Source: Chloroflexota bacterium
GTDB lineage: Bacteria > Chloroflexota > Chloroflexia > Chloroflexales > Roseiflexaceae
Reading direction: 5' to 3'
Assembly (NCBI GenBank): GCA_013388755.1
Contig: JACAEQ010000044.1
Location: forward strand, 1-59,525
DNA length: 59,525 nucleotides
Below, in pieces: positions 6,710 to 27,783 of this stretch (position 1 is its first letter; each line of letters begins with the position of its first letter). Below the pieces are notes generated by a model that had not been told where the DNA came from, did no database searches, and saw only the letters and a list, made by a program, of their open reading frames with translations. The position numbers were made by a program, and so were the translations under genes.

Positions 6710-7057
6710 ATGCTGATGCAAGCGATGCTGCTGCTACGCGCCATTGCTGGCTGGATCTGTATTATCGGTGGGGCAGTGCTTACGATTTCACCGCTACCGT
6801 TTGGTTTTGTCATTGTTATTGCCGGCGTTGCACTCCTCGGCCCGCGTGATCGCGGGTTGCGCTGGCTGCACGCGCGCTGGCATCGCCTGTTGAGCGCCGG
6901 CTCAACTTCCAGCATGCCGTTGATTGCGCACCTGGCGCAACGCATCCATACGTTCCAGCATACCGTTGAGCACAAGGCACGTCGGTGGCTTGCGGCGCGC
7001 GCCACGTCACGCACCGGCGGCACACCTCTCGCTGCCGAAGAGACCAGCCGGCAATAG
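6710..7057 (+). CDS. Small membrane protein (PGPGW-like), unknown function
   Basis: The 115-residue product has two closely spaced hydrophobic segments at about residues 7-42 (LRAIAGWICIIGGAVLTISP, then LPFGFVIVIAGVALLGP) and a basic amphipathic C-terminal half. The layout, two helices with a proline/glycine turn followed by GPRDRGLRW, resembles the small PGPGW-type inner-membrane proteins. GAGG lies 7 bases before ATG 6710. No enzymatic motif. The next gene starts 182 bases on, past a GC hairpin at 7187-7203, so joint transcription is uncertain. Confidence 0.65.
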   Translation: MLMQAMLLLRAIAGWICIIGGAVLTISPLPFGFVIVIAGVALLGPRDRGLRWLHARWHRLLSAGSTSSMPLIAHLAQRIHTFQHTVEHKARRWLAARATSRTGGTPLAAEETSRQ

Positions 7058-7186
7058 GCCGGCTGGCAGCGATCGCTGCTCGTGCGTGTGGTATCATACC
7101 TTCCGTTCGCCCCTTTCGTTCGCCCATCCCTACAGCGGCGAGCAGCACCCGTGAACCACGGATGCGCCGCTGTTCCTGCGCGCCGC

Positions 7187-7203
7187 GCGCCCCATCGGGG
7201 CGC
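7187..7203 (+). terminator. GC-rich hairpin before the three-domain fusion gene
   Basis: GCGCCCC ATC GGGGCGC forms a 7-bp perfect stem with a 3-base loop, 36 bases upstream of the ATG at 7240. No T tract follows on the plus strand, so it may be a weak terminator, a leader hairpin or a repeat remnant. Confidence 0.35.
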
Positions 7204-7239
7204 AAGGGTGGTGCACGTTGCTATAAACGAGGAAGCCTC

Positions 7240-10200
7240 ATGCTGGAAGTCGAGTTTCACGCGCCGCCGTATTCGGCGCAGGATGCCGAACGCCTGGCGG
7301 CCGCATGGTATGGCTTGCATGTCGCTGCACGCGAACTCCCCGGCGAGCGTGATCGCAACTATCATCTGCGCGACGACACTGGCGCAGAGTATGTGCTCAA
7401 AATCGCCAATGCCGAGGAACAACGCGCGACCCTCGACCTGCAGCATGCACTGCTGGCGCATCTGGCGAACCGTGTGCCACACCTGGCGCTGCAACGCGTC
7501 ATTCCAGCGCGCACCGGATCTCTGATTGCCGAGGTTACCGACGATAACGGGGCAACGCACCTTGTGCGCATGTTGACCTTCGTTCCTGGAACACTGCTGG
7601 CCGAAACGCGCCCTCATACGCCTGCGTTGCTGCATAGCCTGGGGCATCTGCTTGGAACCATCGATACCGCACTGCTCGACTTTACGCACCCGGCGGCACA
7701 TCGTTCACTGAAATGGGACCTTGCCGCCGCCGGCTGGATCCGCAACTACATGCACGCCGTCACCAACCCGACGCGTCGCGCACTGGTGGAGCGGCTGTTT
7801 ACACTATATGAAACGGAGGCCGTGCCGCGTCTACCATACCTGCGCTCAGGTGTGATCTACAACGATGCCAATGACTACAACATCCTCGTTGGCGGCGATC
7901 TGTTCGAACGCCGCGTGGTCAGCGTCATTGACTGGGGCGATGCGCTCCACACCCGGATTGTCAATGAACTGGCGATCGCCTGCGCCTACGCGATCCTCGA
8001 CAAACCCGACCCGCTGGCGGCAATGGCGCATGTCGTCGCCGGGTATCATGCCGCGCTACCGCTGGACGACGAGGAACTGGCGGCGCTCTTTCCGCTGATC
8101 TGTGCCCGGCTCTGTGTCAGCGTGGTCAACTCGGCGTACCAGCGCCAGGCCGTACCGGCAAACGATTACCTGACGATCAGCGAGCGACCGGCATGGGATA
8201 CGCTCGAACGCCTGGCGGCGATCCATCCGCGCCTGGCGCACTATACCTTGCGCGCCACCTGCAGCAGGCCGGCAGTGCCACATGCACCGGCAGTCGTACA
8301 CTGGCTGGAAGCGAATGCGACCGCGTTCGCTCCGGTTCTGGCGCCTGACCCTCGTGACGCGGCACTCACCGTGCTCGACTTGAGCATCGCCAGCCTCGAT
8401 CTCGGTGGCAACCACACGTTCGGCGACCTGGCCAGCTTTACACGTACGGTGTTCCGGCAGATCGACGAGGCCGGCGCCGCCATCGGAATTGGGCGCTATA
8501 ACGAAGCGCGACCGATCTACACGGCAGACCAGTTCCGCGTCGCGGGTAATGACATGCCGGCATGGCGAACCATACACGTCGGTCTTGACCTGTTCGCTCC
8601 GCCAGGAACACCGGTATATGCCCCGCTCGACGGCATCGTTCACAGCTTTGCCGATAACCGCGCGCCGCTCGACTACGGCCCGACTATCATTCTGCAGCAC
8701 ACCGCTGGCGACGACCACCTGACGTTCTACACACTCTATGGTCATCTGAGCCGTGAATCGCTTGAGGGATTACAGGCCGGCACCCCGGTCACCAAAGGCA
8801 CGCAGATCGGTAGTATCGGCGACCCTTCGGTAAATGGCGGATGGCCGCCGCACCTGCACCTGCAGATCATCACCGACATGCTTGATATGCAGGGCGACTT
8901 TCCCGGCGTTGCGCTACCCTGCCAGCGTGACGTGCAGCTGAGCCTTAGCCCTGATCCGAACCTGCTGGCACGCATCCCCGCCGGGCGCTTTCCCGCCGCG
9001 CCAGCCGGCCCGGCGACGATACTGGCCACACGCCGCGAGTATATCGGCCCGTCGCTCAGCATCTCCTATCGCCGGCCACTCACAATCGTGCGTGGCTGGA
9101 TGCAACACCTGTACGACATTGACGGCCAGGCATACCTCGACGCGGTCAATAACGTCCCCCATGTCGGCCATTGCCACCCGCAGGTCGTACGAGCCGGGCA
9201 GCGCCAGATGGCGGTGCTTAACACGAATACTCGCTATTTGCACGAAAACCTGACGCGCTTCGCCGAGCGACTCTGCGCAACACTACCTGCACCGCTGCGC
9301 GTCTGCTATTTTGTCAATTCCGGCAGCGAGGCGACCGAACTGGCGCTTCGCCTGGCGCGCGTCGCTACCGGGCGCACAGCAATGGTGGTGGTCGACGTCG
9401 GCTACCATGGTAATACCACCGGCGCGGTAGAGGTCAGTTCCTACAAGTTCGATGGTCCGGGCGGCACCGGCCCGGCGCCGCATATTTTCAAAACACCGAT
9501 GCCCGACCTCTATCGTGGCCTGTACCGTCGCGACGATCCTGACGCGGCCAGGAAATACGCCGCACACGTGGCGGCCGCACTGGACCAGGCGACGGCCCGG
9601 GGTGGCGCAGCCGGTTTCATCTGCGAATCGATTTTGAGCTGCGGTGGCCAGATCGTCCTGCCTGACGGATACCTGCGTGCCGCGTACCAGCATGTGCGCG
9701 CCGCCGGTGGCGTCTGCATTGCCGATGAGGTACAGACTGGCTTCGGCCGCGTGGGGTCGCATTTCTGGGCCTTCGAAACGCAGGGGGTTGTGCCCGATAT
9801 CGTGACGATGGGTAAGCCAATCGGCAACGGCCACCCGCTGGGCGCCGTCGTCACGACACCAGAAATCGCGCGCGCCTTCAACAATGGCATGGAGTATTTC
9901 AACACCTTTGGCGGGAACCCGGTATCATGCGCCATTGGCATGGCGGTGCTCGATGTTATTGAGCGGGAAGGATTGCAGCAGCACGCGCTGATAACCGGTG
10001 CCCGGCTGCTGGAGGGATTGCGCGCACTGATGGAGCATCACTCGCTGATTGGCGACGTGCGCGGCCTGGGCCTGTTCCTCGGCATCGAACTGGTGCATGA
10101 CCATGACATACGCACACCGGCGGCGATCGAGGCATCATACATCGCCAACCGTATGCGGGATCGCGGTATTCTCCTGAGCACCGACGGGCCGGACCATAAC

Positions 10201-10290
10201 GTCCTGAAGATCAAGCCACCACTCGCATTCACCGTCGCCGACGCGGACCGGCTGGTCGCGACGATGGACGACGTACTGCACGAAATCTGA
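7240..10290 (+). CDS. Three-domain fusion: APH-type kinase, M23 peptidase-like domain, class III aminotransferase/phospholyase
   Basis: One 1016-residue frame joins three enzymes. Residues about 20-330 form an aminoglycoside-phosphotransferase fold like hydroxylysine kinase ([10 protein letters not shown] with catalytic Asp209; IDWGDA with Asp231). The usual HGD is YND here. Residues about 420-600 are an M23/LytM zinc-peptidase fold with an intact ligand set: HVGLD (His446, Asp450), YGHLS and HLH (His538, His540). Residues about 610-1016 are a PLP-dependent class III aminotransferase, with TMGKPIGNG giving Lys859. Human hydroxylysine kinase and its phospholyase partner belong to the first and last families, so kinase plus phospho-lyase on one small amine is an inference. 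No signal peptide is visible, which is odd for M23. GAGGAAG precedes ATG 7240; the frame opens earlier but that part is low quality. Confidence 0.88.
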
Positions 10291-12613: not shown

Positions 12614-13192
12614 ATGACAATGGATGACGAAGCTACTCTGATCGCCGGGTTACGCAGGCGCGATCAGCAGGCATTTGCAGCCTTCTTCGAACGCTATGCC
12701 GACCGGGTGTATCGCCTGGCACACGGCATCGTCGGTAATGAAGCTGATGCAGAGGAAGTGCTCCAGACCACGTTCATCTCCGCATTCGAGGCGATCGATC
12801 GTTTTGAGCAGCATGCGCGCCTGGGCACATGGCTGTACCGCATTGCATACAATCACGCCCTGATGCTGCTGCGCAAACGGCGTCCGGTCGAGCCGTTGCC
12901 GGAGGATGATGGCGAATTGCCGATGCCGGCAGCCCTGACCGACTGGACGGCGCTGCCTGAGGAGCGCTTGCTCAGCCGCGAAGCCCGGGACATCCTGCGC
13001 CACGCCATTGCTGCATTGCCCGACGGGTTACGCGAGGCGTTCGTCTGCCGTGACGTCGAAGGACTTTCGACCGCCGAATGCGCCCAGGTCATCGGCATCA
13101 GCGAGGGCGCGGTGAAGGTGCGCCTGCATCGTGCACGCCTGGCGATGCGCGAGCGGGTCAGTGCGTATTTTGGCGAATGGGCCGCTGTGTGA
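12614..13192 (+). CDS. ECF-type RNA polymerase sigma factor (first)
   Basis: A 192-residue sigma factor with region 2 at about residues 20-90 (YRLAHGIVGNEADAEEVLQT and LGTWLYRIAYNHALMLLRK) and region 4 at about 130-180 (LPDGLREAFVCRDVEGLSTAE, then EGAVKVRLHRAR as the helix-turn-helix). It directs RNA polymerase to promoters of an extracytoplasmic stress or signal regulon. It precedes a zinc-finger anti-sigma gene, the classic pairing in which the anti-sigma holds the sigma until a signal arrives. A TATAAT box and palindrome lie just upstream. The exact ECF group cannot be set by eye; length and lack of extra C-terminal domain fit a RpoE-like group. Confidence 0.92.
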   Translation: MTMDDEATLIAGLRRRDQQAFAAFFERYADRVYRLAHGIVGNEADAEEVLQTTFISAFEAIDRFEQHARLGTWLYRIAYNHALMLLRKRRPVEPLPEDDGELPMPAALTDWTALPEERLLSREARDILRHAIAALPDGLREAFVCRDVEGLSTAECAQVIGISEGAVKVRLHRARLAMRERVSAYFGEWAAV

Positions 13193-13215
13193 TGGCGCGA
13201 CGTACGGAGAGAACC

Positions 13216-13479
13216 ATGACATGTGATGAGTTGATCGCGCATCTGTCCAGCTACATAGACCATGAGATCGATACTGAACTGGCCGCCGAGGTGCGCGAGC
13301 ATATTGCCGGCTGTACCAACTGCCGCGTCGTGCTGGATACCACGCAGCGTATGATCGTCCTGGTGCATGATGAAGGACAGCGGGCCATCCCTGCCGGCCA
13401 GCGCAGTGCGCTCTTCGAGCGACTGCAGCGTACGTTCCTTGACCAGCCACCCGCGCCCGAAGCCGATCGCTCAGTGTAA
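13216..13479 (+). CDS. Zinc-finger (zf-HC2) anti-sigma factor, first module
   Basis: A short 87-residue protein starting MTCDELIAHLSSYID, the usual opening of zf-HC2 anti-sigma factors, with the zinc motif HIAGCTNC (His-x3-Cys-x2-Cys) near residue 35. No membrane segment follows, so it is a soluble, probably redox- or metal-sensing anti-sigma rather than a membrane one. Start 13216 has GGAGAG 5-7 bases upstream; an ATG at 13192 overlapping the sigma stop would add eight residues and translational coupling. Partner of the sigma factor ending at 13192. Confidence 0.85.
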   Translation: MTCDELIAHLSSYIDHEIDTELAAEVREHIAGCTNCRVVLDTTQRMIVLVHDEGQRAIPAGQRSALFERLQRTFLDQPPAPEADRSV

Positions 13480-13480
13480 G

Positions 13481-13598
13481 ACCAGGTAGCAGTCGATCGT
13501 ACCGGATGACAGCGCCCTGAGGAGCCGTGCAGCGACGTCGCGCAGGGTGCATGCCGTCGCTCCTGATCGGTGCCTGTCTGCATACAACCGGATGTAAC
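13481..13598 (+). repeat. Dispersed repeat, 118 bp (family R2, copy A)
   Basis: The stretch ACCAGGTAGCAG...CCGGATGTAAC is closely alike to 17467-17584 over its whole length. Shared blocks include GAGCCGTGCAGCG, GGGTGCATGCCGTCGCT and CTGATCGGTG. Part of it returns inverted at 40572-40618 before bchN. The GCGCCCT / AGGGTGC arms allow an internal hairpin. It fills the gap between the two sigma modules and has no coding frame of note. Confidence 0.7.
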
Positions 13599-13639
13599 CC
13601 TCGCCAGAACGCGCGCATCTAGAAAGTGAGCGCCACGAC

Positions 13640-14242
13640 GTGCCCGGACCAATCATCGACCTGACAATCTATGACAGCGAGGAGCAGCTGCTTGCAGGGC
13701 TACGTCGCCGCGAACCAGACGCCTGCGCCTGCCTGATCAAACGTTTCGCCCCACTCGTCTATGCCCAATCGTTACGCCTGCTCGGCGACCCTGATGAGGC
13801 CGAAAGTGTGCTGCAGCAAACATTCATCAAGGCGTGCGCCAGGCTGGACGGGTACGAAGGGCGGAGCGGACTGGGAAGCTGGCTGTACCGCATTGCCACC
13901 AATGAGGCGCTGATGCAACTACGGCGGCACGCACCGCGCGTGGCACTCGATGATGTCGCCGAGACGATCCAGGCCGATGAGATCCCGCAGCGAACCACCC
14001 TGTGGTCGCTCGACCCGGCGACAGCGGCGCTTGACGGCGAATTGCGCGCCGAACTGGAAAAGGCGCTGGCTGCGCTCCCGGAAACGCTCCGCGTGGTGTT
14101 TGTGCTGCGCGAAATCCAGGGGTTGAGCACCGACGAAACGGCCGCGGCCCTTGGTCTCGGCGAGAGTGCGGTCAAGGTCCGGCTGCACCGCGCACGCTTA
14201 CGGCTGCGCGAACTGCTGGCAACGTATATGCTCGGGCACTGA
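13640..14242 (+). CDS. ECF-type RNA polymerase sigma factor (second)
   Basis: A 200-residue sigma factor similar in plan to the first: region 2 includes YAQSLRLLGDPDEAESVLQQ and LGSWLYRIATNEALMQLR, and region 4 includes TDETAAALGLGESAVKVRLH. It is paired with its own anti-sigma gene 35 bases downstream. The two sigma factors are clearly paralogous and probably arose by tandem duplication of the whole module. The GTG start at 13640 is not preceded by a strong ribosome-binding site, which may keep its level low. Confidence 0.9.
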   Translation: MPGPIIDLTIYDSEEQLLAGLRRREPDACACLIKRFAPLVYAQSLRLLGDPDEAESVLQQTFIKACARLDGYEGRSGLGSWLYRIATNEALMQLRRHAPRVALDDVAETIQADEIPQRTTLWSLDPATAALDGELRAELEKALAALPETLRVVFVLREIQGLSTDETAAALGLGESAVKVRLHRARLRLRELLATYMLGH

Positions 14243-15020: not shown

Positions 15021-16670
15021 CTAGAAATACCGGCTCAGATTCTCGAAGATCTGGCCGATATCGCCGGAATCACCCTTGACCAGAATGGTACGCGAGAACT
15101 CAACGATTCGCTCAAGCGTCGCCGTATCGGCGTCCTCGCCATAGGCAACCGGGAAGATACTGATACCCGACTCGTCAAATGCCTGCTGCAGGCCATCAAA
15201 GGTTATCTGGCTGGCATTGTCGAGTCCATCGGACAACAGGACGATCGCGCGAATACGATCATCTTCGGCGGCAGGCAGATCATCGAGCGCCTGCTTGCTC
15301 AGAATCAATGCATCGTAGAGCGCCGTCTTGCCCTGGGCGCGAAGCCCTGCAATCGTATCATCGAGCGCGATCCGCGACTCGCTCAGTGGCGCCGGCGGCA
15401 CCAGCAACCGCGCATCCGATGAAAATGCGACCAGGCCCACCCGATCCTCCGGAAGAATACGCATCAAGAATGCTCCAAGACCCGCTTTCGTCGCCTCGAT
15501 CTTCTCGCCCTCCATCGAACCCGATACATCAACCACCAGCAGGATATCGGCGCGCTTGCGGTTGAGCGCCCAGGTATTCTTGGCCGCAACAATGACGTCG
15601 GCAGGCGGGACCGGCAGCACACTCTGCACACCCTGTGGCTGTACGCCATAGGCAATGCTGACCGGGTCGGCAAGCGGGACATCAACATTGGCCGGGCGAA
15701 AACCGTAACTCATTGCGAGTTGCTGGCTCTCGACCGTCAACAGGAAATCATAGAACTGCTGCGCGGCCCGGCGTTCCTGCTCCGAAGCACTGGCCATCAC
15801 AATGAACGGGTTATCATGCCAGAAGGTGCCTTCACGCGGATAAATCGCCACCAGCGGGACCGGAGGGTTCTTATTCTTATTGAAGTCAATGAGCGTGATC
15901 TCTTCCATCGGAAATGCCGAGATGTAACTCATCCCGAACTTCCGCATGTTTTCGCTGAAGACGAGGGTATTGTAGCCATAGTGCTTGATACCCCTACCCA
16001 GATCACGGATGAATTGCTGGCTTTCCGGCTTCCGAACATCCTCCACCGTCAACTCGCGCTGCTTACCCACCGCTGCATAAAACTCGGCCAGCAGCGTGGA
16101 AAGCGCGCTGGTACTGATTTCAGGGTCGGTATGGCCCCAGCTAAAGCGCCCCCACTCCGGATGGCTATATGCTCCCCATCCGTCCGGGTTCTCGATCAGG
16201 GCCAGCATGTCGGACCACCCGATGGCCGTGTTCGGCCAGCCGAGCGCTTCAGCCATCGGGCGCCACATCGAGATCACGACCGGTGTCAGCACCAGAGGCT
16301 GGTTCGACACGGCCACATTGGGGTTGCCGCCTTCATACTTCAACACTTCCAGCCAGGTAGAAGCCGATGGTGACCAGACGGTTACCTGGAGCTGGCCATT
16401 CTTGATCTCGGTCCGCGCCGCCCCGCTTGATCTGTTGATGCCTTCCACGAACACCGGGCGTCCGTCAACCTGGATGCGGGAACGATTAAACGCCGCGATC
16501 CGTTCCTTCAACCAGCCTTCCTTCTCAGGGCTATACGCTATTGTGATCCGGACGGCGTTGGCCGGCACCTGGCCAGAATCAGTCGTATCCCCTCCGCCAC
16601 CAGGCAGGCTGCCACACGATGAAAACAGCAGCGCCAGAACGACCAGAAGCACGGGTAATGTACGTTGCAT
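15021..16670 (-). CDS. Lipoprotein: extracellular solute-binding fold fused to von Willebrand A domain (first paralog)
   Basis: The 549-residue product starts with a lipoprotein signal (lipobox LFSSC, Cys19). Residues about 40-340 form a type II periplasmic-binding-like domain (TVWSPSAS, VAIYPREGTFW, YGFRPA). Residues about 375-549 form a von Willebrand A domain with a complete MIDAS metal site: DVSGSM starting at Asp381, then TAL, then SDGLD. Bound outside the membrane, it may pair ligand capture with Mg-dependent protein adhesion. Similar SBP-VWA proteins occur in actinobacteria, cyanobacteria and Chloroflexota next to tellurite/toxic-anion genes. The ligand is unknown. It lies 21 bases after a coiled-coil membrane gene on the same strand, with which it is probably co-transcribed. 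Confidence 0.85.
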   Translation of the reverse strand: MQRTLPVLLVVLALLFSSCGSLPGGGGDTTDSGQVPANAVRITIAYSPEKEGWLKERIAAFNRSRIQVDGRPVFVEGINRSSGAARTEIKNGQLQVTVWSPSASTWLEVLKYEGGNPNVAVSNQPLVLTPVVISMWRPMAEALGWPNTAIGWSDMLALIENPDGWGAYSHPEWGRFSWGHTDPEISTSALSTLLAEFYAAVGKQRELTVEDVRKPESQQFIRDLGRGIKHYGYNTLVFSENMRKFGMSYISAFPMEEITLIDFNKNKNPPVPLVAIYPREGTFWHDNPFIVMASASEQERRAAQQFYDFLLTVESQQLAMSYGFRPANVDVPLADPVSIAYGVQPQGVQSVLPVPPADVIVAAKNTWALNRKRADILLVVDVSGSMEGEKIEATKAGLGAFLMRILPEDRVGLVAFSSDARLLVPPAPLSESRIALDDTIAGLRAQGKTALYDALILSKQALDDLPAAEDDRIRAIVLLSDGLDNASQITFDGLQQAFDESGISIFPVAYGEDADTATLERIVEFSRTILVKGDSGDIGQIFENLSRYF

Positions 16671-16691
16671 AACAGCCTCATGCCAATCGAA

Positions 16692-17459
16692 TCACGCGGC
16701 GCCACTCTGGGTGAGCGCAGTGTCAAGCACTGCCTGAAAGGCATCCATATCAGCCTTGAGATCCGCCAGGCGCCGCGCCACCTGGCTGGTGGCGCTGTCG
16801 GCGCTGGCGGCGTCGGCGGTGCGGAGCCGCACCGTCTCGGCCAGGACATTGTCAAGGCTGGCGCCGATATTCTGGAGCTGCGCATTGATCCGGCCAATGT
16901 ACGTGTCGAGATCACGCACGTTCTCCAACTTTTCGATACGCGAGCGGCGCGTTTCCTGAAGCTGGGCCAGGGTATACTGATCCTGGGTCGTGCGGATCTG
17001 CGCATCAATACCGCTAATATCCTTCTCGATGACGCGCCGGTCAACCGATGCCAGGTAACGCTCGATGATCTGGCCCTTCTCTGCAAGCGTGTACGCCTCT
17101 TCGACCAGTTCGCGCCCCTGGTCGGCAATCGGCAGCAGCAACCGCGACAGCGGCCCACCCGCCTGTGCGGCGCTGCGCGCAATCTCGCGCTGTGTCCGCT
17201 CGATCGCCTCGATCTGCACCCGAAACGTCGGGCTGGTGAGGCGTGGTCGCGGCGTGGGCGGCGGGCGGCGGGCCTGCGCCGCAAGCGCCGGATCACGCGC
17301 CGCAAGCACGACCATCAGGAGATACGCCAGCAATCCGAGCGGCAGGAGCCAGAGCGCCACGGTTAACCCGGCAATCACCGCGACGACGGCGACAACCACG
17401 GCCAGCGGCTGGCGCGCGGCAAGCATCCATGGAGATGGCACGTTCACAGCAGACCTCAT
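16692..17459 (-). CDS. Coiled-coil inner-membrane protein of the SBP-VWA cluster
   Basis: A 255-residue protein with a paired hydrophobic stretch at about residues 18-55 (VVVAVVAVIAGLTVALWLLP, then LLAYLLMVVLAA) followed by a Pro/Arg linker and a long charged helical region (residues about 75-250). QIEAIERTQREIARSA and TTQDQYTLAQLQETRRSRIE show heptad-like spacing. It likely sits in the membrane with the coiled coil in the cytoplasm. It is wedged between two SBP-VWA lipoprotein genes. Cytoplasmic coiled-coil partners are seen with such lipoproteins elsewhere (XpaC/TelA-like sets), but no direct homolog can be asserted. Confidence 0.7.
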   Translation of the reverse strand: MRSAVNVPSPWMLAARQPLAVVVAVVAVIAGLTVALWLLPLGLLAYLLMVVLAARDPALAAQARRPPPTPRPRLTSPTFRVQIEAIERTQREIARSAAQAGGPLSRLLLPIADQGRELVEEAYTLAEKGQIIERYLASVDRRVIEKDISGIDAQIRTTQDQYTLAQLQETRRSRIEKLENVRDLDTYIGRINAQLQNIGASLDNVLAETVRLRTADAASADSATSQVARRLADLKADMDAFQAVLDTALTQSGAA

Positions 17460-17466
17460 GCGTACT

Positions 17467-17584
17467 ACCAGGTAACAGGTGATTGTACACGTTTACAGCA
17501 CCCTGAAGAGCCGTGCAGCGGCGTGGCGAAGGGTGCATGCCGTCGCTTCTGATCGGTGTACGTCTGAATGCAACCGGATATAAC
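17467..17584 (+). repeat. Dispersed repeat, 118 bp (family R2, copy B)
   Basis: Runs ACCAGGTAACAGG to CCGGATATAAC, closely alike to copy A at 13481-13598 in the same orientation. The GCACCCT and AGGGTGC arms within it can pair. It starts 7 bases upstream of the ATG of the coiled-coil gene (minus strand), so this gene's leader runs through the repeat. Confidence 0.7.
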
Positions 17585-17681
17585 TTCTACCAACCAGGCC
17601 TGGATATGGCTCGTGTCAGGTCACAACGGTGCAATGAAAACGCATGACGTTGCTCTTTGCGCGAGCGTATCTGCAGCGGGG

Positions 17682-19352
17682 CTAGAAGAACGTTGCAATA
17701 TCGCGGTAGACGCGCTCGATACTGCCGCGCTCATCGGGCTTGCCGACATAGCTTCGGGCGCCCGATGCTGTGGCGATATCCTTGAGCAACGTGACATCAG
17801 CGTCACCGCCGAAGGCGATCGTAAAGATCTTGATACTGCGGCCCTCCTCATCCTGGCCGACCAGCGACAATAGCTGCTGTGGCGTTTGCTGGCTCCGGTT
17901 GTCGAGGCCATCCGTCAGGGCGACGATCGCACGAATACGTGTCCCCGGCGGTTCAGCCGCGAGGGTCTGGTAGGTCTCGGCGACCGTGTCGAGCAGGCGC
18001 GTTCCGCCACGGGGCGTCAACCCGCCGATCCGATCGAGCGTCTCAGCGCGTTTCGGCCCGATCGGCGAGATTGGCGTGAGCACTGATGCCTCATTGCTGA
18101 AAATCGTCAATCCGAACCCGTCATCGGCCTCGAGCTGTTCGACGAAAATCCGCAGCGCAGCCTTTGCCTGCTCCAGCCGGCTTTCCTCTTCCATGCTACC
18201 CGACACATCCAGCACCACCATCACATCCACCCGCTTCTTGTTCTCCAACCAGAGCGTGCGAATCGCAGCCAGTACATCTGGTCGCGGCACTTCCAGCAAT
18301 GTTTTCGGTTGCTGCGGATCAACGCCATTCTCCGGTACAATCGGCGCCGTCATCGGCACGTTCGGGTCAGCGGGGCGGAAACCATATTGCAGCGCCAGTT
18401 CCTGCTGCGGCTGGTCGAGGAGGTATGCCTGGAACACCTCGGCGGCGGCACGCTGCTCGGCACTCACCCATGACGCATTCAGAATGGCATAGGGGTGGTC
18501 GCTCCAGAAGGTGCCTTCGCGCGGGTAGATCGCCACCACCGGCGTTGACTGGTTCGGGTAGCGCTCGCGATTGCGCGACTCGATCACCAGGTTTTCATAC
18601 AACACCGCCGCCGAAAGATAAGCCGGCCCGCGATTGAACATCTGCTCGCCGAAAAAGCCGGTGCTTTCACCATAGTGGATCACGCCGCTCTGGATCTTCC
18701 GCATGAATTCAGCCGCCGCGGGGGCCTGCACATCAGCGACGGTAAGACCGCGCGTCTTGCCCGTCGCTGCGTACGCCACCGCAATGATGGTTGTAATGCC
18801 GCTATTGGAATAGTCAGGGTGGGTATGGCCGAATTGCACCGGTCCCCATTCCGGCCGGCCAAAATCGGCCCAACTCTTGCCGCTCGCGGAAAGCTCGGCA
18901 ATATCCGTCCAGCCGGGTTGCGTGTCGGGCCAGCCAAGCACACGCGCCATCGGCTCCCACATGGCAATCACCACCGGGCTGAGCACCAGTGGTGGCGCAT
19001 CTTCAGCAACCAGTTGCGCACCATTGTGCGTCTTGCCCCATTCATCATTGGCGACCGGCAATAGAATCTTGCTCGCCGGGCTCCAGACGGTCGGCTGGAT
19101 CGTACCGTCAAGGATCTGGTTCAATGAGTCGGTCGAACCCATCGGCGTGGCCGTTACCCGGATGGTCGCGCCATCGGCTGTCTTCTGGCCCGCGTTGTTG
19201 AAGCGGCTGACGACATCCTCCATCCAGGCGCGCTTCTCACTGCCGTAGACAATGCTGATCTCAACCGTGCTGCCGCCGATACCGCCACCGCTACAGGCAA
19301 CGAGCACCGGGGCAAGCAGCACAATGATCAGCAACAGACGCAGGATACGCAT
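17682..19352 (-). CDS. Lipoprotein: solute-binding fold fused to von Willebrand A domain (second paralog)
   Basis: A 556-residue paralog of the product encoded at 15021-16670 with the same order: lipobox LVAC (Cys20), a binding-protein domain (VWSPASK, VAIYPREGTFW, YGFRPADPNVP), and a C-terminal von Willebrand A domain with DVSGSM and LTDGLD. The shared motif YPREGTFW(S/H)D(H/N)P marks the hinge region. Start 19352 gives a proper lipoprotein signal and has AAGGTG about 11 bases upstream; the 38-residue N-terminal extension is not signal-like. Same strand as the downstream coiled-coil and first lipoprotein genes, with a 222-base gap that contains repeat R2. Function is inferred to be extracytoplasmic ligand-dependent sensing or assembly. 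Confidence 0.85.
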   Translation of the reverse strand: MRILRLLLIIVLLAPVLVACSGGGIGGSTVEISIVYGSEKRAWMEDVVSRFNNAGQKTADGATIRVTATPMGSTDSLNQILDGTIQPTVWSPASKILLPVANDEWGKTHNGAQLVAEDAPPLVLSPVVIAMWEPMARVLGWPDTQPGWTDIAELSASGKSWADFGRPEWGPVQFGHTHPDYSNSGITTIIAVAYAATGKTRGLTVADVQAPAAAEFMRKIQSGVIHYGESTGFFGEQMFNRGPAYLSAAVLYENLVIESRNRERYPNQSTPVVAIYPREGTFWSDHPYAILNASWVSAEQRAAAEVFQAYLLDQPQQELALQYGFRPADPNVPMTAPIVPENGVDPQQPKTLLEVPRPDVLAAIRTLWLENKKRVDVMVVLDVSGSMEEESRLEQAKAALRIFVEQLEADDGFGLTIFSNEASVLTPISPIGPKRAETLDRIGGLTPRGGTRLLDTVAETYQTLAAEPPGTRIRAIVALTDGLDNRSQQTPQQLLSLVGQDEEGRSIKIFTIAFGGDADVTLLKDIATASGARSYVGKPDERGSIERVYRDIATFF

Positions 19353-19707
19353 ACCGACATAACACCTTTCTCGTAAAATACCACGTATGGTCATGAGCCA
19401 TCGGTAAGAAGCAACAGGCCTGTGGCTGCTCACATCGCAAACCTCCTGCCTGAAGCGTACCAGCACCGGCGTACGTTCCTGGAGGGTTTTGAGCGGGCTT
19501 ATGATCTGTAAGCCGGCGGGCTGAAGCCCTCGGCTCCGTGGGGCGAAGCCGGCCCGTGCCGGCTCCTACAGGCCGCGCAGGCGGCCTTTGCCGAACGAAG
19601 CCGAGCCCTTCAGGGCCACGGCGGAGCGTCTACCGGTTGTAATACTGAATGCTCATGAGCCCGCCAGAATACGACGCGCGACAGCGCAACCGCTACGCTT
19701 GAGCATA
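19353..19707. other. Intergenic gap carrying a dispersed repeat
   Basis: This 355-base gap between two paralogous exported-protein genes is mostly repeat (19517-19617) with short flanks. No open frame of quality and no clear terminator T-tract are seen. Confidence 0.5.
19517..19617. repeat. Dispersed repeat with inverted ends (copy 2 of the unit at position 1)
   Basis: GGGCTGAAGCCCTCGGCT is answered by AGCCGAGCCCTTCAGGG at 19599-19615, an imperfect inverted pair. The interior has GAAGCCGGC / GTGCCGGCTC and AGGCCGCGCAGGCGGCCT stems. It shares its end motif and stem plan with 1-88. Confidence 0.6.
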
Positions 19708-20952
19708 CTAGCGATTCACCTGACGCCGCCACAGGTCAAGCAGCGTCGAAACGACCTCGCCCGAAGGGGTCTGTACCTGCTGCGCGATATCGACCCGCGC
19801 ACCAAAATCACGGTATTTATTGAACGGATTTTCAGGATCATTCGACAGAATGGGAACGTTCGGGTCGGCGGGCCGGAAGCCGTACGGTTGAAGCGCCAGC
19901 TCCTGGATCGGACGCGAAAGCAGGAAATCGCGGAATTGCGCCGCCGCGAGACGTTGTTCAGGTGTTACCCAGGATGCCTGCAGCATGGCATACGGGTGGT
20001 CACTAAACATTGTCGCCGGCGGGTAATAGATGCGAATGTCCCCCCAGCGTCCCTGCGCCGCCTGGATGTTCTCCAGCGCCAGGTTTTCATAGACGATGAC
20101 CACATCGTACTTGCTGGGGCCGAACTGCACCATGCTCGTCATGAACGTGCCGGTGCTGTCGCCAAACTCAAGCACCGCCGTCTCAATATCGAGCAACCAG
20201 CGCTGAAATGCCGGATCGAGGATATCGGCGTTTGTGAGGTTGGAGGTTTTGTTGTGGTAGGCGTAGGTCAGCAACATAAGCGCCTGTGCGCCGCTATTCG
20301 AGGTGAGCGGCGACGTATGGCCGAACTTGACGAACCCCCACTCCTGAGCTTTCCGATACTCCGGCGAATCAGGCGCGAACCCGCGCGCCTTCGCCACACC
20401 GACCCAGCCCTCGTTATTGGCCAGTGCATCGTGCAGGTACTGCCAGAAGTTGGCTGGACCATTCGTCCACAGCACCCGCGCGCGCTCTTCCCACGCCACG
20501 ACCACCATTGGCGTCAGCGCCAGCGGGCGCGGTGCGTCGGCGCCGTCTGCAATGATTGACGGGCTACCCGGGTTACGCGTGGCCCAGTCATTCTTCAACA
20601 CCTCAACCCATATACTGCTGGCAGGGCTGATCACCGTCGGCTGGCCGGCACCCTGGAAATCCTGGCGCGCAACCCGTTCCGCAATCTCACGTGACCCGAT
20701 CCCGCGCAGAACGACCTGAATCGGGCGATTGCCGACGCGCGGGCTGGTGGCGGCAAAACGTTGGGCGGCGTCCTCGAGCCACTGGCGCTTTTCGGTGCCA
20801 TACCAGATCGTGATTACCACCGGATCCTGCGCCGGGCCGAGCGGGATCGGGAACGGCGCGTATCCGACCGGGCCGGCAAAGGCGGTTGCCAGCAACGCCA
20901 GCAAACAGATGAGCAAGTACCCGAAGCCAATCACGCGCGGAAGTGGTTGCAT
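19708..20952 (-). CDS. Exported solute-binding-fold protein without von Willebrand domain (third paralog)
   Basis: A 414-residue relative of the binding-protein half of the two lipoproteins downstream (shares ITIWYGTEKRQWLEDAA with their ITIAYSPEKEGWLKE/ISIVYGSEKRAWMED openings, and the C-terminal PYGFRPADPNVP). It has a hydrophobic N terminus (about residues 8-27) ending in AFAG and no lipobox Cys, so it is probably released by signal peptidase I or stays anchored. It ends where the others begin their von Willebrand A domain. It may be the soluble binding partner of the set, or a truncated copy that is still intact as a frame. First gene of the cluster in transcription order. Confidence 0.78.
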   Translation of the reverse strand: MQPLPRVIGFGYLLICLLALLATAFAGPVGYAPFPIPLGPAQDPVVITIWYGTEKRQWLEDAAQRFAATSPRVGNRPIQVVLRGIGSREIAERVARQDFQGAGQPTVISPASSIWVEVLKNDWATRNPGSPSIIADGADAPRPLALTPMVVVAWEERARVLWTNGPANFWQYLHDALANNEGWVGVAKARGFAPDSPEYRKAQEWGFVKFGHTSPLTSNSGAQALMLLTYAYHNKTSNLTNADILDPAFQRWLLDIETAVLEFGDSTGTFMTSMVQFGPSKYDVVIVYENLALENIQAAQGRWGDIRIYYPPATMFSDHPYAMLQASWVTPEQRLAAAQFRDFLLSRPIQELALQPYGFRPADPNVPILSNDPENPFNKYRDFGARVDIAQQVQTPSGEVVSTLLDLWRRQVNR

Positions 20953-24978: not shown

Positions 24979-27783
24979 GTGATGCTCCTGAAACGGTTGC
25001 GTACGAATCCGGGCCTCCTGGTTGGGTTTGCGCTGCTCCTGGCGGCGCTGGCACTGCCAGTAGCGGCCCAGTCGGGCAATGTGACCGTGGTTGATGAAAC
25101 CGGCGAACTCGATGTGGCCGCCGTGCAACGCGCGGCCCAGCCACTGGCGGCGCGGGGCGCGCGGGTGGGCGTTTTTCTGATCGAGCGCGGCGGCGAGGAT
25201 GATGCATTGCGTCGCTACCAGCGTGCCGGCCTGGCGAGCGGCAGCGCGATTGATGCCAGTACGATCGCCATCTATGTCTCATTCGACCCGCGCTATGCCG
25301 AGATTGCTTTTGGCGACCGCTGGAACGCGGCGCTTCTGACGAATGACAATGCCGGGACGATCCGGCAAAATCAACTGGTGCCCGGCCTGACCGGTGGTGA
25401 TGAGACCCGTGGCGTGGTTGATGCGCTGACGGCAATCGAGCGCTCGATCGCCGCGCCACCCGCACCTGCGGGGGGCACGACGGTCATTAACCAGGGCGAC
25501 ACGGTGAATGTTGATCTGGTTCCGGTCGTCATCGGCGTCATTGCGGTCATTCTGCTCCTGGTCGCCGGCCCGCTTCTCTGGCGCGGGTATCAGAAGCGGC
25601 GCAGCGTTGCACAGGCGCTACAGACGGCACGCACCGGTGCCCAGGCGGCGCGCCGTGCGGCCAGCGCCGCCATCGCCGATATGGGCCAGGTCCTTCGCGT
25701 CGCCCAGGAGAAAGCGCAGTTCGACAGGGTATCATACGCCGAGGCGGATGTTCGCCAGTTAGCCGAGATTCAGGGCGACGCTGAAGCTCGGTTCGTCCAG
25801 GCCCAGGAAGCGTTTGCCGCAGCGGAGGAGCGACTCCGTCTGCAACGTGAGCCGACGCAGGCGGAATACGAAGGCGCCACACAGACATATACCCGTATCG
25901 CGCAGGAGGTCGCGGCTGCACGCGAGGCGCTGGCGCAGGCTGAAGCGCGCCGCGCCGACCTGGATGCGATCGCCCGGGTAGCGCCCGGCGAGGTGGACAA
26001 AGCAAAAAAAGCGCTGGCTGACGCTGCCGAGCAACTCGGGGCGCTCGGCGAAGACGTCGCGCAACCCGAGGCAGTGCTCCGGCCTGTCGAGGCGCTGGTC
26101 GAGCGTGCCGTCGCGCTCCTTGAGCAGCACCGCGCCGCCGATGCGATCACGGCGGCTGGGGCAGCGTCAGCCGCGGCAGGAGAACTTGCGACGGTGCTGG
26201 CCCGTTTCAACGACATCCGCGCTGGTATTGCGGCCGGGCGAGTTGCTGCCGAGAAGGCTGCGGCGCTCGGTTTTCGTATCGACGCCGGCCTGGCTGCGTT
26301 CGGTACCGCTGAAGGGCTGCTGCGCCAGGCGGCTACGGCGTTACCGCTGGTCGGGGCCGCCGGTGTCGGTAGCCTGCTCGACCAGGCGGACAGAGCGCGC
26401 GAACTGGGTGTCATCCGTGGCGGTAGCCTGCCAGCGCGCCAGCGCGCCAACGAAGAACGCCTGGAGAAGGTCAGGCAGGCCGGCGAGGCGCTGGCAGCGG
26501 CGATTGATGCCGGGTGGCGCGCCTTCGACATTGTTGACGAGTTCGCCGAGAGCACCTGGAGCGATATTCGCGGCAATGGCAGCGAAGCCGAGAAGGCCGC
26601 CGATGAAGCGCAGGAACTCTGGGAACAGGCCGCCGAGCGCAACTCAATGGAACGCCAGGAGTTCATCGAAGCCGCTGCCGATCTCGATCACGCCGAGGAG
26701 CGAATCGCCGCCGCCCATGCCCTGATCGACGCCATTCTCCAGCGCCTGAAGGATCTGGAGGCCGCGCGGGCGGCCGCGCGCGATGAGATTGCGGCAGCAG
26801 AGGCGGATATTGCCCGCGGGCGCGAATATGTGGCGGCCAACGATCCTGATGTCGGCAAGGAGCCGGAACGACTGCTCGCCAGGGCCGAATCCGCCCTGGC
26901 GCAGGCGCGCGCCGAAATCCAGCAGGAACGCCCCGACTGGCTGGCCATCGTACGGCAGGCGGTCGAAGCCAATCGCCTGGCCGACCAGGCGCTCGTCGGG
27001 GCGCAATCCGACGTGGATGCGATGAACAAACTGCGGGTCCAGTTGCAACACGTGCAGCAGATCGCCACCGCCGAAACGCAGAAAATCATTCAGTTCGTGG
27101 GCATTCACCCGCGCGACATTCCTGCCGGCACGAAAGACAGGATCAATGGCCTGAACATCAATCTGCAGGCCGCCAACACCGTCGCTCAGGGCGTCGTCGA
27201 ACGCGAGGAAGAAGCGCGCGCGTCAGCGCTACGCGACGCCATTGAGCGGTATACTGCGCTCGAGCAGCAGGCCGCCCGGCTCTACGAAGAGATCCTGGGC
27301 CATTTCCAGCGTCTCGAAGACATGCGGCGACAGGTGACCGCCGAGGTTGAGCGCGCCCACGCCGCCATCACAGGCGCCGAGCGCACCCTGGCGCGCGCTG
27401 GCGGCGCCGTGAGTTCGCGTTCGGAAGGCGTGGCGTTGCTGCAGGATGCACGCTCAAGCTATAGCCAGATCGGGCCAGTGTACCACGAAGCGGATTTGCA
27501 ACGAGCGCTTGGATGGGCACGCGACGCGCGCGACAAAGCCGAACGCGCCGAGCGTTTCTTCGACGAGCAGATTCGCGCTGCGGCGCGGCGTAGCCAGGAC
27601 GAGATCGGCGATTTCGTCGGCGGTATGATTGTCGGCTCGATCCTGAGCGGTGGGCGTTCCAGCAGCAGGAGTAGCAGCTGGGGGAGTGGTGGCGGCCGAC
27701 GCAGCGCAGGAAGCTGGAGCGGCGGCGGCCGGCGCAGTGGTGGCGGCTTTGGTGGCGGTACCCGCCGCGGGGGCGGCTGGTAG
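24979..27783 (+). CDS. Exported TPM-domain protein with long coiled coil and glycine-rich tail
   Basis: A 934-residue protein in four parts: signal peptide (residues 1-31, ending PVAAQS); a TPM-like domain (about 35-160, with DASTIAIYVSFDPRYAEIAFGD); a membrane helix (about 178-200, VVIGVIAVILLLVAGPLLW); and a roughly 650-residue Ala/Glu/Arg-rich coiled coil running to about 880, then an Arg/Ser/Gly-rich tail with SGGG and RRGGGW. TPM proteins work in photosystem II repair in plants and as envelope phosphatases or assembly factors in bacteria, so an envelope role is likely here, with the coiled coil in the cytoplasm. The start is GTG 24979 or ATG 24982, with AAAAGGAG upstream. It is convergent with a zinc-ribbon gene only 13 bases away. 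Confidence 0.8.
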   Translation: MMLLKRLRTNPGLLVGFALLLAALALPVAAQSGNVTVVDETGELDVAAVQRAAQPLAARGARVGVFLIERGGEDDALRRYQRAGLASGSAIDASTIAIYVSFDPRYAEIAFGDRWNAALLTNDNAGTIRQNQLVPGLTGGDETRGVVDALTAIERSIAAPPAPAGGTTVINQGDTVNVDLVPVVIGVIAVILLLVAGPLLWRGYQKRRSVAQALQTARTGAQAARRAASAAIADMGQVLRVAQEKAQFDRVSYAEADVRQLAEIQGDAEARFVQAQEAFAAAEERLRLQREPTQAEYEGATQTYTRIAQEVAAAREALAQAEARRADLDAIARVAPGEVDKAKKALADAAEQLGALGEDVAQPEAVLRPVEALVERAVALLEQHRAADAITAAGAASAAAGELATVLARFNDIRAGIAAGRVAAEKAAALGFRIDAGLAAFGTAEGLLRQAATALPLVGAAGVGSLLDQADRARELGVIRGGSLPARQRANEERLEKVRQAGEALAAAIDAGWRAFDIVDEFAESTWSDIRGNGSEAEKAADEAQELWEQAAERNSMERQEFIEAAADLDHAEERIAAAHALIDAILQRLKDLEAARAAARDEIAAAEADIARGREYVAANDPDVGKEPERLLARAESALAQARAEIQQERPDWLAIVRQAVEANRLADQALVGAQSDVDAMNKLRVQLQHVQQIATAETQKIIQFVGIHPRDIPAGTKDRINGLNINLQAANTVAQGVVEREEEARASALRDAIERYTALEQQAARLYEEILGHFQRLEDMRRQVTAEVERAHAAITGAERTLARAGGAVSSRSEGVALLQDARSSYSQIGPVYHEADLQRALGWARDARDKAERAERFFDEQIRAAARRSQDEIGDFVGGMIVGSILSGGRSSSRSSSWGSGGGRRSAGSWSGGGRRSGGGFGGGTRRGGGW

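What the first reader, a model, noticed from the sequence alone, without database searches (positions are those of the whole stretch)
15021..20952. Array of three binding-protein-fold exported proteins, two fused to von Willebrand A, with a coiled-coil membrane partner
Seen: three paralogs in a row on one strand (shared YGFRPA motif; the two lipoproteins also share YPREGTFW), two ending in a VWA domain with a complete MIDAS site, one ending before it, and a membrane coiled-coil protein between the lipoproteins. No ABC permease or ATPase is beside them, so simple uptake is unlikely. Inference: an extracytoplasmic ligand-sensing or assembly system in which Mg-dependent VWA contact depends on a bound ligand. 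This is the best candidate for an undescribed system here.
Basis: partly seen in the sequence, partly recalled or inferred. Interest (0 to 1): 0.62.

Follow-up and report, generated by a model that had tools for sequence, protein, structure and literature searches.

The report
Binding-protein/VWA envelope sensor module
Three related surface binding proteins and a small membrane coiled-coil protein form a gene set found in several bacterial phyla, where it sits beside membrane-stress proteins and kinases rather than transporters, so it probably senses something outside the cell and reports it to the membrane-protection machinery.

Summary
On the minus strand lie SBP (19708-20952), an SBP-VWA lipoprotein (17682-19352), a two-TM coiled-coil protein, CC (16692-17459), and a second SBP-VWA lipoprotein (15021-16670). 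The window alone under-tells the story. In Chloroflexota, Acidobacteriota, Verrucomicrobiota and Actinomycetota the same genes recur, usually as SBP, SBP-VWA, CC. PspA/IM30 lies on the same strand in 21 loci, with an AAA+ ATPase in five. A parallel version pairs SBP-VWA with TelA, plus XpaC where found. In Ktedonobacteria the SBP domain is the outside domain of a transmembrane Ser/Thr kinase encoded next to SBP-VWA. In some Chloroflexaceae a histidine kinase follows CC. No permease family recurs in the flanks. MIDAS and shared SBP residues are strongly conserved. CC is single-copy in nearly every Chloroflexales genome that has it. The best reading is a trans-envelope ligand sensor or assembly platform coupled to membrane-stress effectors or kinases. 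The ligand, the effector contact and the role of the VWA metal site are inferred. The fusion already has a RefSeq name, but I found no paper on the module in the open library searched. In the window's own genome PspA is present but unlinked, and TelA is absent.

The parts
19708..20952 (-). Stand-alone SBP (type II solute-binding fold, SBP_bac_11), 414 aa, N-terminal hydrophobic anchor or signal, no lipobox
   Evidence: PF13531 E 7.8e-17; 42% identical to the SBP part of the next gene; shared conserved residues
17682..19352 (-). SBP-VWA lipoprotein A, 556 aa from ATG 19352 (ORF opens at GTG 19466)
   Evidence: SBP_bac_11 3.8e-16 and VWA 1.1e-13; AlphaFold2 mean pLDDT 93.2, pTM 0.90; SBP part Z 28 to thiamin- and sulfate-binding proteins, VWA part Z 25.6 to 4fx5
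18192..18209 (-). MIDAS motif DVSGSM of copy A (residues 382-387; distal T451 and D481)
   Evidence: D382, S384, M387, G482 invariant and S386, T451, D481 at 90% or more in 69 sequences
18375..18377 (-). Arg326 of the YGFRP motif, conserved in SBP-VWA, SBP and kinase-SBP alike (with Glu253 and Tyr276)
   Evidence: 98-100% (R326), 100% (E253), 92-100% (Y276) in all three classes
16692..17459 (-). CC: membrane hairpin (helices 18-33, 38-54) plus five-helix region predicted to be cytoplasmic, 255 aa
   Evidence: AlphaFold2 mean pLDDT 93.7; exactly one hit in 22 of the 23 Chloroflexales genomes that have it; positive-inside charges on both sides of the hairpin
15021..16670 (-). SBP-VWA lipoprotein B, 549 aa, lipobox FSSC
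   Evidence: VWA_2 2.2e-15, SBP_bac_8 5.9e-15; belongs to a different deep clade of the family from copy A
15513..15530 (-). MIDAS motif DVSGSM of copy B (residues 381-386)

Best explanation
The array is a copy of a conserved trans-envelope sensor module. Shown: a stand-alone SBP and SBP-VWA lipoproteins carry export signals and share a type II binding-protein fold; they are linked across phyla to one family of two-TM coiled-coil membrane protein (CC); and outside this genome they are linked to PspA/IM30, TelA with XpaC, or kinases. Inferred: the SBP and SBP-VWA proteins bind a small, probably anionic ligand on the outer face of the membrane. Closure of the SBP lobes, or metal-dependent contact through the VWA MIDAS with an acidic residue of a partner, changes the state of the assembly. 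CC carries that change across or along the membrane to a cytoplasmic effector: PspA in trans here, PspA in cis in other phyla, or a kinase. The output would be membrane protection and/or phosphorylation signalling.
For: Conserved set SBP, SBP-VWA, CC, with CC on the same strand within 4 kb of 80 of 158 SBP-VWA ORFs at a median gap of 17 bp. PspA on the same strand in 21 of 21 loci where it occurs; 23 SBP-VWA ORFs have it within 4 kb, where I would expect about 0.6 if placement were random (2 PspA genes per 5 Mb). PspA identity confirmed by Pfam, and the link is spread over separated parts of the tree. AAA+ follows in five loci. TelA with SBP-VWA in eight loci, XpaC beside TelA. Kinase-TM-SBP fusion in 14 loci, every one with a TM between kinase and SBP (domain calls). 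Histidine kinase after CC in L046, L052, L062 and near it in L063. No permease family among the recurrent flanking families, while Peripla_BP_6, histidine kinase, response regulator, AAA and Band_7/SPFH recur. Genomes with SBP-VWA almost all have PspA (50 of 51, against 111 of 250 without). Precedent: HptA, an SBP-fold protein with Z 25.4 to this model, senses glucose-6-phosphate for the kinase HptS instead of serving transport (PMC8774646). TelA/XpaC belong to envelope-stress responses (PMC12791056, PMC3139573).
Against: In the window's own locus no PspA, TelA, kinase or AAA+ is linked; PspA is single and far away. The PspA co-occurrence is confounded by phylogeny and genome size. CC has almost nothing outside the membrane, so a direct contact with the lipoproteins is not obvious. 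Ligand, binding, complex formation and output are untested. Some members lack the standard DxSxS MIDAS signature (L040, L044, L070, L071).
Confidence: 0.5

Rival explanations
1. Orphan uptake: the SBPs feed an ABC permease encoded elsewhere, and VWA/CC only tether or cluster them at the membrane.
For: The fold is closest to transport SBPs for thiamin, sulfate, ferric iron and hexose phosphate. In one relative a Pst transporter lies about 5 kb upstream.
Against: No permease family recurs among 67 flanking genes. The same SBP domain is fused to a Ser/Thr kinase in Ktedonobacteria, and SBP and CC stay linked even where the SBP-VWA gene has moved away (L047, L049).
Confidence: 0.15
2. An assembly or chaperone platform: the VWA MIDAS engages client envelope proteins, as in MoxR-VWA systems, with the AAA+ or PspA polymer remodelling the membrane beneath; the SBP lobe recognises a peptide or wall fragment rather than a metabolite.
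For: AAA+ and PspA linked in L124, L126, L129, L133, L137; Band_7/SPFH flanks; PspA-AAA+ and PspA-Band_7 contexts are described as assembly systems (PMC11237479).
Against: No AAA+ in this genome's locus or in most loci; the kinase fusions favour signalling.
Confidence: 0.25
3. Surface adhesin or matrix-binding lipoproteins whose VWA binds extracellular polymers or neighbouring cells, with no signalling.
For: VWA domains with MIDAS are common in adhesins (general knowledge; VWA hits to adhesins and pilins), and the family is found in several filamentous Chloroflexota.
Against: Does not explain the linked PspA, TelA-XpaC, kinases and CC, nor the conserved binding-protein domain on three protein architectures.
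Confidence: 0.08

Closest known systems
Phage shock protein (PSP/PspA) envelope-stress systems
   Same: PspA/IM30 is linked on the same strand in 21 relatives of this locus, with AAA+ in five, echoing known PspA-AAA+ contexts
   Different: The 2024 survey of PSP partners has no vWA mention in its main text and its solute-binding mentions concern other systems (PMC11237479); PspB and PspC were not noticed in these loci (not searched for); in this genome PspA is unlinked
TelA-XpaC (toxic anion / envelope-stress) pair
   Same: A distant SBP-VWA clade is linked to TelA, with XpaC in the place of CC
   Different: No TelA in this genome; CC is not detectably related to the XpaC-like protein
HptASR of Staphylococcus aureus
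   Same: SBP-fold extracellular protein used as a ligand sensor for a membrane kinase (PMC8774646); similar fold, Z 25.4 to 6lkg
   Different: No VWA, no CC; here the kinases vary between lineages or are fused directly to the SBP
RefSeq 'substrate-binding and VWA domain-containing protein'
   Same: The fusion protein itself, named in Streptomyces
   Different: The name carries no system, partners or function
Sulfate/thiamin/ferric/hexose-phosphate binding proteins (type II SBPs)
   Same: Fold of the N-terminal domain, Z 23-28
   Different: No cognate permease or ATPase; fused to VWA or to a kinase; sequence identity 10-19%

Membership tests
ABC-transporter substrate-binding protein | SBP fold with export signal or lipobox | tested here: met
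ABC-transporter substrate-binding protein | Linked cognate permease and ATPase | tested here: not met
   None beside the array; in relatives no permease family matched by two or more of 67 flanking genes; ABC-ATPase signatures near only 10 of 146 loci, mostly distant. A permease encoded elsewhere is not excluded
VWA domain proteins with MIDAS | DxSxS plus distal T and D | tested here: met
PSP system | PspA/IM30 encoded in the locus | tested here: not met
   Absent from the window's array; single PspA elsewhere in G000. Met in 21 related loci
TelA-XpaC system | TelA (PF05816) present with XpaC (PF10112) | tested here: not met
   No TelA in G000; TelA linked in other loci, XpaC certain in L190
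SBP-sensor two-component system (HptASR type) | Histidine kinase linked to the SBP | tested here: not met
   None beside the window array; present in L046, L052, L062, L063
SBP / SBP-VWA / CC module (this report) | SBP and CC adjacent, usually with SBP-VWA | tested here: met
SBP / SBP-VWA / CC module (this report) | Physical complex and ligand binding | not testable with these tools
   needs biochemistry

The most novel reading that the evidence does not exclude
A previously undescribed, cross-phylum trans-envelope sensor system in which metal-dependent VWA lipoproteins with a binding-protein sensor lobe control ESCRT-III-like PspA (or the TelA analogue) through a two-TM coiled-coil adaptor, with lineage-specific replacement of the output by Ser/Thr or histidine kinases.
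Probability: 0.4. Interest if true: 0.82.

Novelty: new variant of a known kind. Interest (0 to 1): 0.62.

Why it matters
How PspA-type membrane-protection systems learn about events outside the cell is poorly known beyond proteobacteria. This module supplies a candidate outside arm (ligand lobe plus metal site) and a candidate membrane adaptor (CC). It also suggests that the PspA and TelA-XpaC responses are two outputs of one sensor design, and it gives kinase-SBP fusions in which ligand sensing could be tested directly.

Tried and rejected
Sensing via TelA in this genome: no TelA. CC as XpaC: profile comparison gives nothing, while CC and the Acidobacteriota/Verrucomicrobiota two-TM protein do match (96%, E 3e-9). 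CC against solved structures: no hit below E 0.001. PspA neighbourhoods in Chloroflexales for a hidden link: no CC, SBP or VWA there. The EAA-loop motif test for permeases was too strict and is not used as evidence; the Pfam tally of flanks replaces it. An apparent 711-aa SBP fusion in L055 looks like a non-coding upstream extension and was dropped. Literature searches for the fusion or the module returned nothing relevant in the held open library; subscription papers, such as the 2012 Ter-system comparative genomics paper that I recall but could not read, may mention parts of it.

Full report
OBSERVATION. Pfam gives SBP_bac_11 for all three paralogs and VWA/VWA_2 for two. NCBIfam has no model that reaches its cut-off for any of them. 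In the whole genome the middle gene finds only the other two as SBP paralogs; the remaining hits are VWA-only proteins. The middle gene should start at ATG 19352.

ANATOMY. AlphaFold2 models the SBP-VWA protein at mean pLDDT 93 and pTM 0.90. The N-terminal domain matches thiamin-, sulfate-, hexose-phosphate- and ferric-binding proteins (Z 23-28), including HptA (6lkg), an SBP that works as a sensor with a histidine kinase. The C-terminal domain matches VWA proteins (Z about 25). By sequence, every solved chain shown (best 60) matches the VWA part only, and no structural hit listed covers both domains. MIDAS residues are invariant or above 90% in 69 diverse members. Residues including E253, Y276, P277, S182 and R326 are shared by SBP-VWA, stand-alone SBP and kinase-SBP proteins, so the presumed binding site is a common feature; that they line the pocket is inference from the fold. 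CC is modelled at pLDDT 93.7 as a short membrane hairpin plus five helices; positive charges flank the hairpin on both sides, which puts the helical part in the cytoplasm.

DISTRIBUTION. SBP-VWA proteins occur in 51 of 301 Chloroflexota genomes, 22 of 246 genomes of the phylum of G303, titled Solirubrobacteraceae, i.e. Actinomycetota, 3 of 145 of the phylum of G307, titled Verrucomicrobiales, and rarely in Acidobacteriota. A scan of one genome per species also found them in contigs titled Planctomycetota, Verrucomicrobia, Acidobacteria, Polyangiaceae and Solirubrobacteraceae. In Chloroflexales a model of CC gives exactly one hit in 22 of the 23 genomes that have it. Where I looked at the place it lies beside an SBP of this family, and it is absent from genomes such as G142 and G150 that also lack SBP-VWA.

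NEIGHBOURHOODS. A six-frame survey with profiles built here covered 158 SBP-VWA ORFs in 146 loci. CC is within 4 kb on the same strand for 80 (median gap 17 bp). PspA is within 4 kb on the same strand for 23 ORFs (21 loci, all 21 same-strand); by my estimate about 0.6 would be expected at random. The PspA identity is confirmed by Pfam at E 5e-45 and 6e-10. In G301, G302 and G305 the module-linked PspA is a divergent second copy (40-49 bits, against 97-120 bits for the other copy). An AAA+ ATPase (PF00004, 2e-22) follows in five loci. Eight loci carry TelA, with XpaC beside it where tested positive (PF10112 E 8e-35 in L190, weak in L182). In 14 loci, mostly named Ktedonobacteria (some are the same genome fetched twice), a zinc-ribbon Ser/Thr kinase with one TM has the SBP domain outside, directly upstream of SBP-VWA. 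In four Chloroflexaceae-like genomes a histidine kinase lies near CC. A Pfam tally of 67 immediate same-strand flanks shows no recurrent permease; what recurs is Peripla_BP_6, histidine kinase, response regulator, AAA, Band_7 and GPP34 (only the 25 commonest families are listed there, so a permease in a single flank is not excluded).

PHYLOGENY. A quick tree of 75 members puts the window's two SBP-VWA proteins in different, deeply separated clades, so the array is not a recent tandem duplication. PspA linkage appears in separated parts of the tree, while TelA and kinase linkage are each clustered.

CO-OCCURRENCE. Of 51 Chloroflexota genomes with SBP-VWA, 50 have PspA, against 111 of 250 without it (Fisher p 1.4e-14). 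I counted the overlap by reading the two lists. Relatedness and genome size confound this, so it is supporting only.

MECHANISM. Shown: conserved linkage, domain architecture and conserved site residues. Inferred: ligand-dependent change in SBP and SBP-VWA, a metal-dependent VWA contact, transfer through CC, output through PspA/TelA or kinases. The window's genome has one unlinked PspA and no TelA, so here the output would be PspA in trans or something unknown. HptA shows that an SBP can signal rather than transport (PMC8774646). TelA/XpaC are upregulated in, or protect during, envelope stress (PMC12791056, PMC3139573).

NOVELTY. RefSeq names the fusion. The PSP partner survey has no vWA mention in its main text, and searches of the held open-access library found no description of the module. 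I therefore rate it a new variant of a known kind (an envelope-stress/sensor system) with a plausible claim to more.

Noticed in passing
window 12614-14242 (+): Two ECF sigma factors with an anti-sigma-like ORF (13078-13479, by eye) convergent with the array; related sigma ORFs are kept beside the array in L053 (3218 and 4200). A sigma factor also lies about 2.4 kb downstream of an SBP-VWA gene in Miltoncostaea (L153). Possible regulators.
   Followed up: partly
window 6985-10290 (+): One 1101-aa protein joins an aminoglycoside-phosphotransferase-like kinase, an M23 peptidase and a class III aminotransferase.
   Followed up: no
window 24979-27783 (+): 934-aa protein whose N-terminus looks TPM-like by eye, followed by a TM and long coiled coil and a Gly/Ser-rich tail; no Pfam family. 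TPM domains are reported as PspA partners (PMC11237479).
   Followed up: no
L040, L044, L070, L071: Some SBP-VWA paralogs lack the standard DxSxS MIDAS signature, usually next to a copy that has it.
   Followed up: partly
flanking genes of the module in relatives, tallied: Band_7/SPFH and GPP34 domains each appear twice among the immediate same-strand flanks of the module.
   Followed up: no
L123, L126 (genomes G301, G302): Contigs titled Rhodanobacteraceae and Betaproteobacteria (BOG_genome_mining): at least G301 draws the same phylum sample as Granulicella G305, so the record title is probably wrong.
   Followed up: partly
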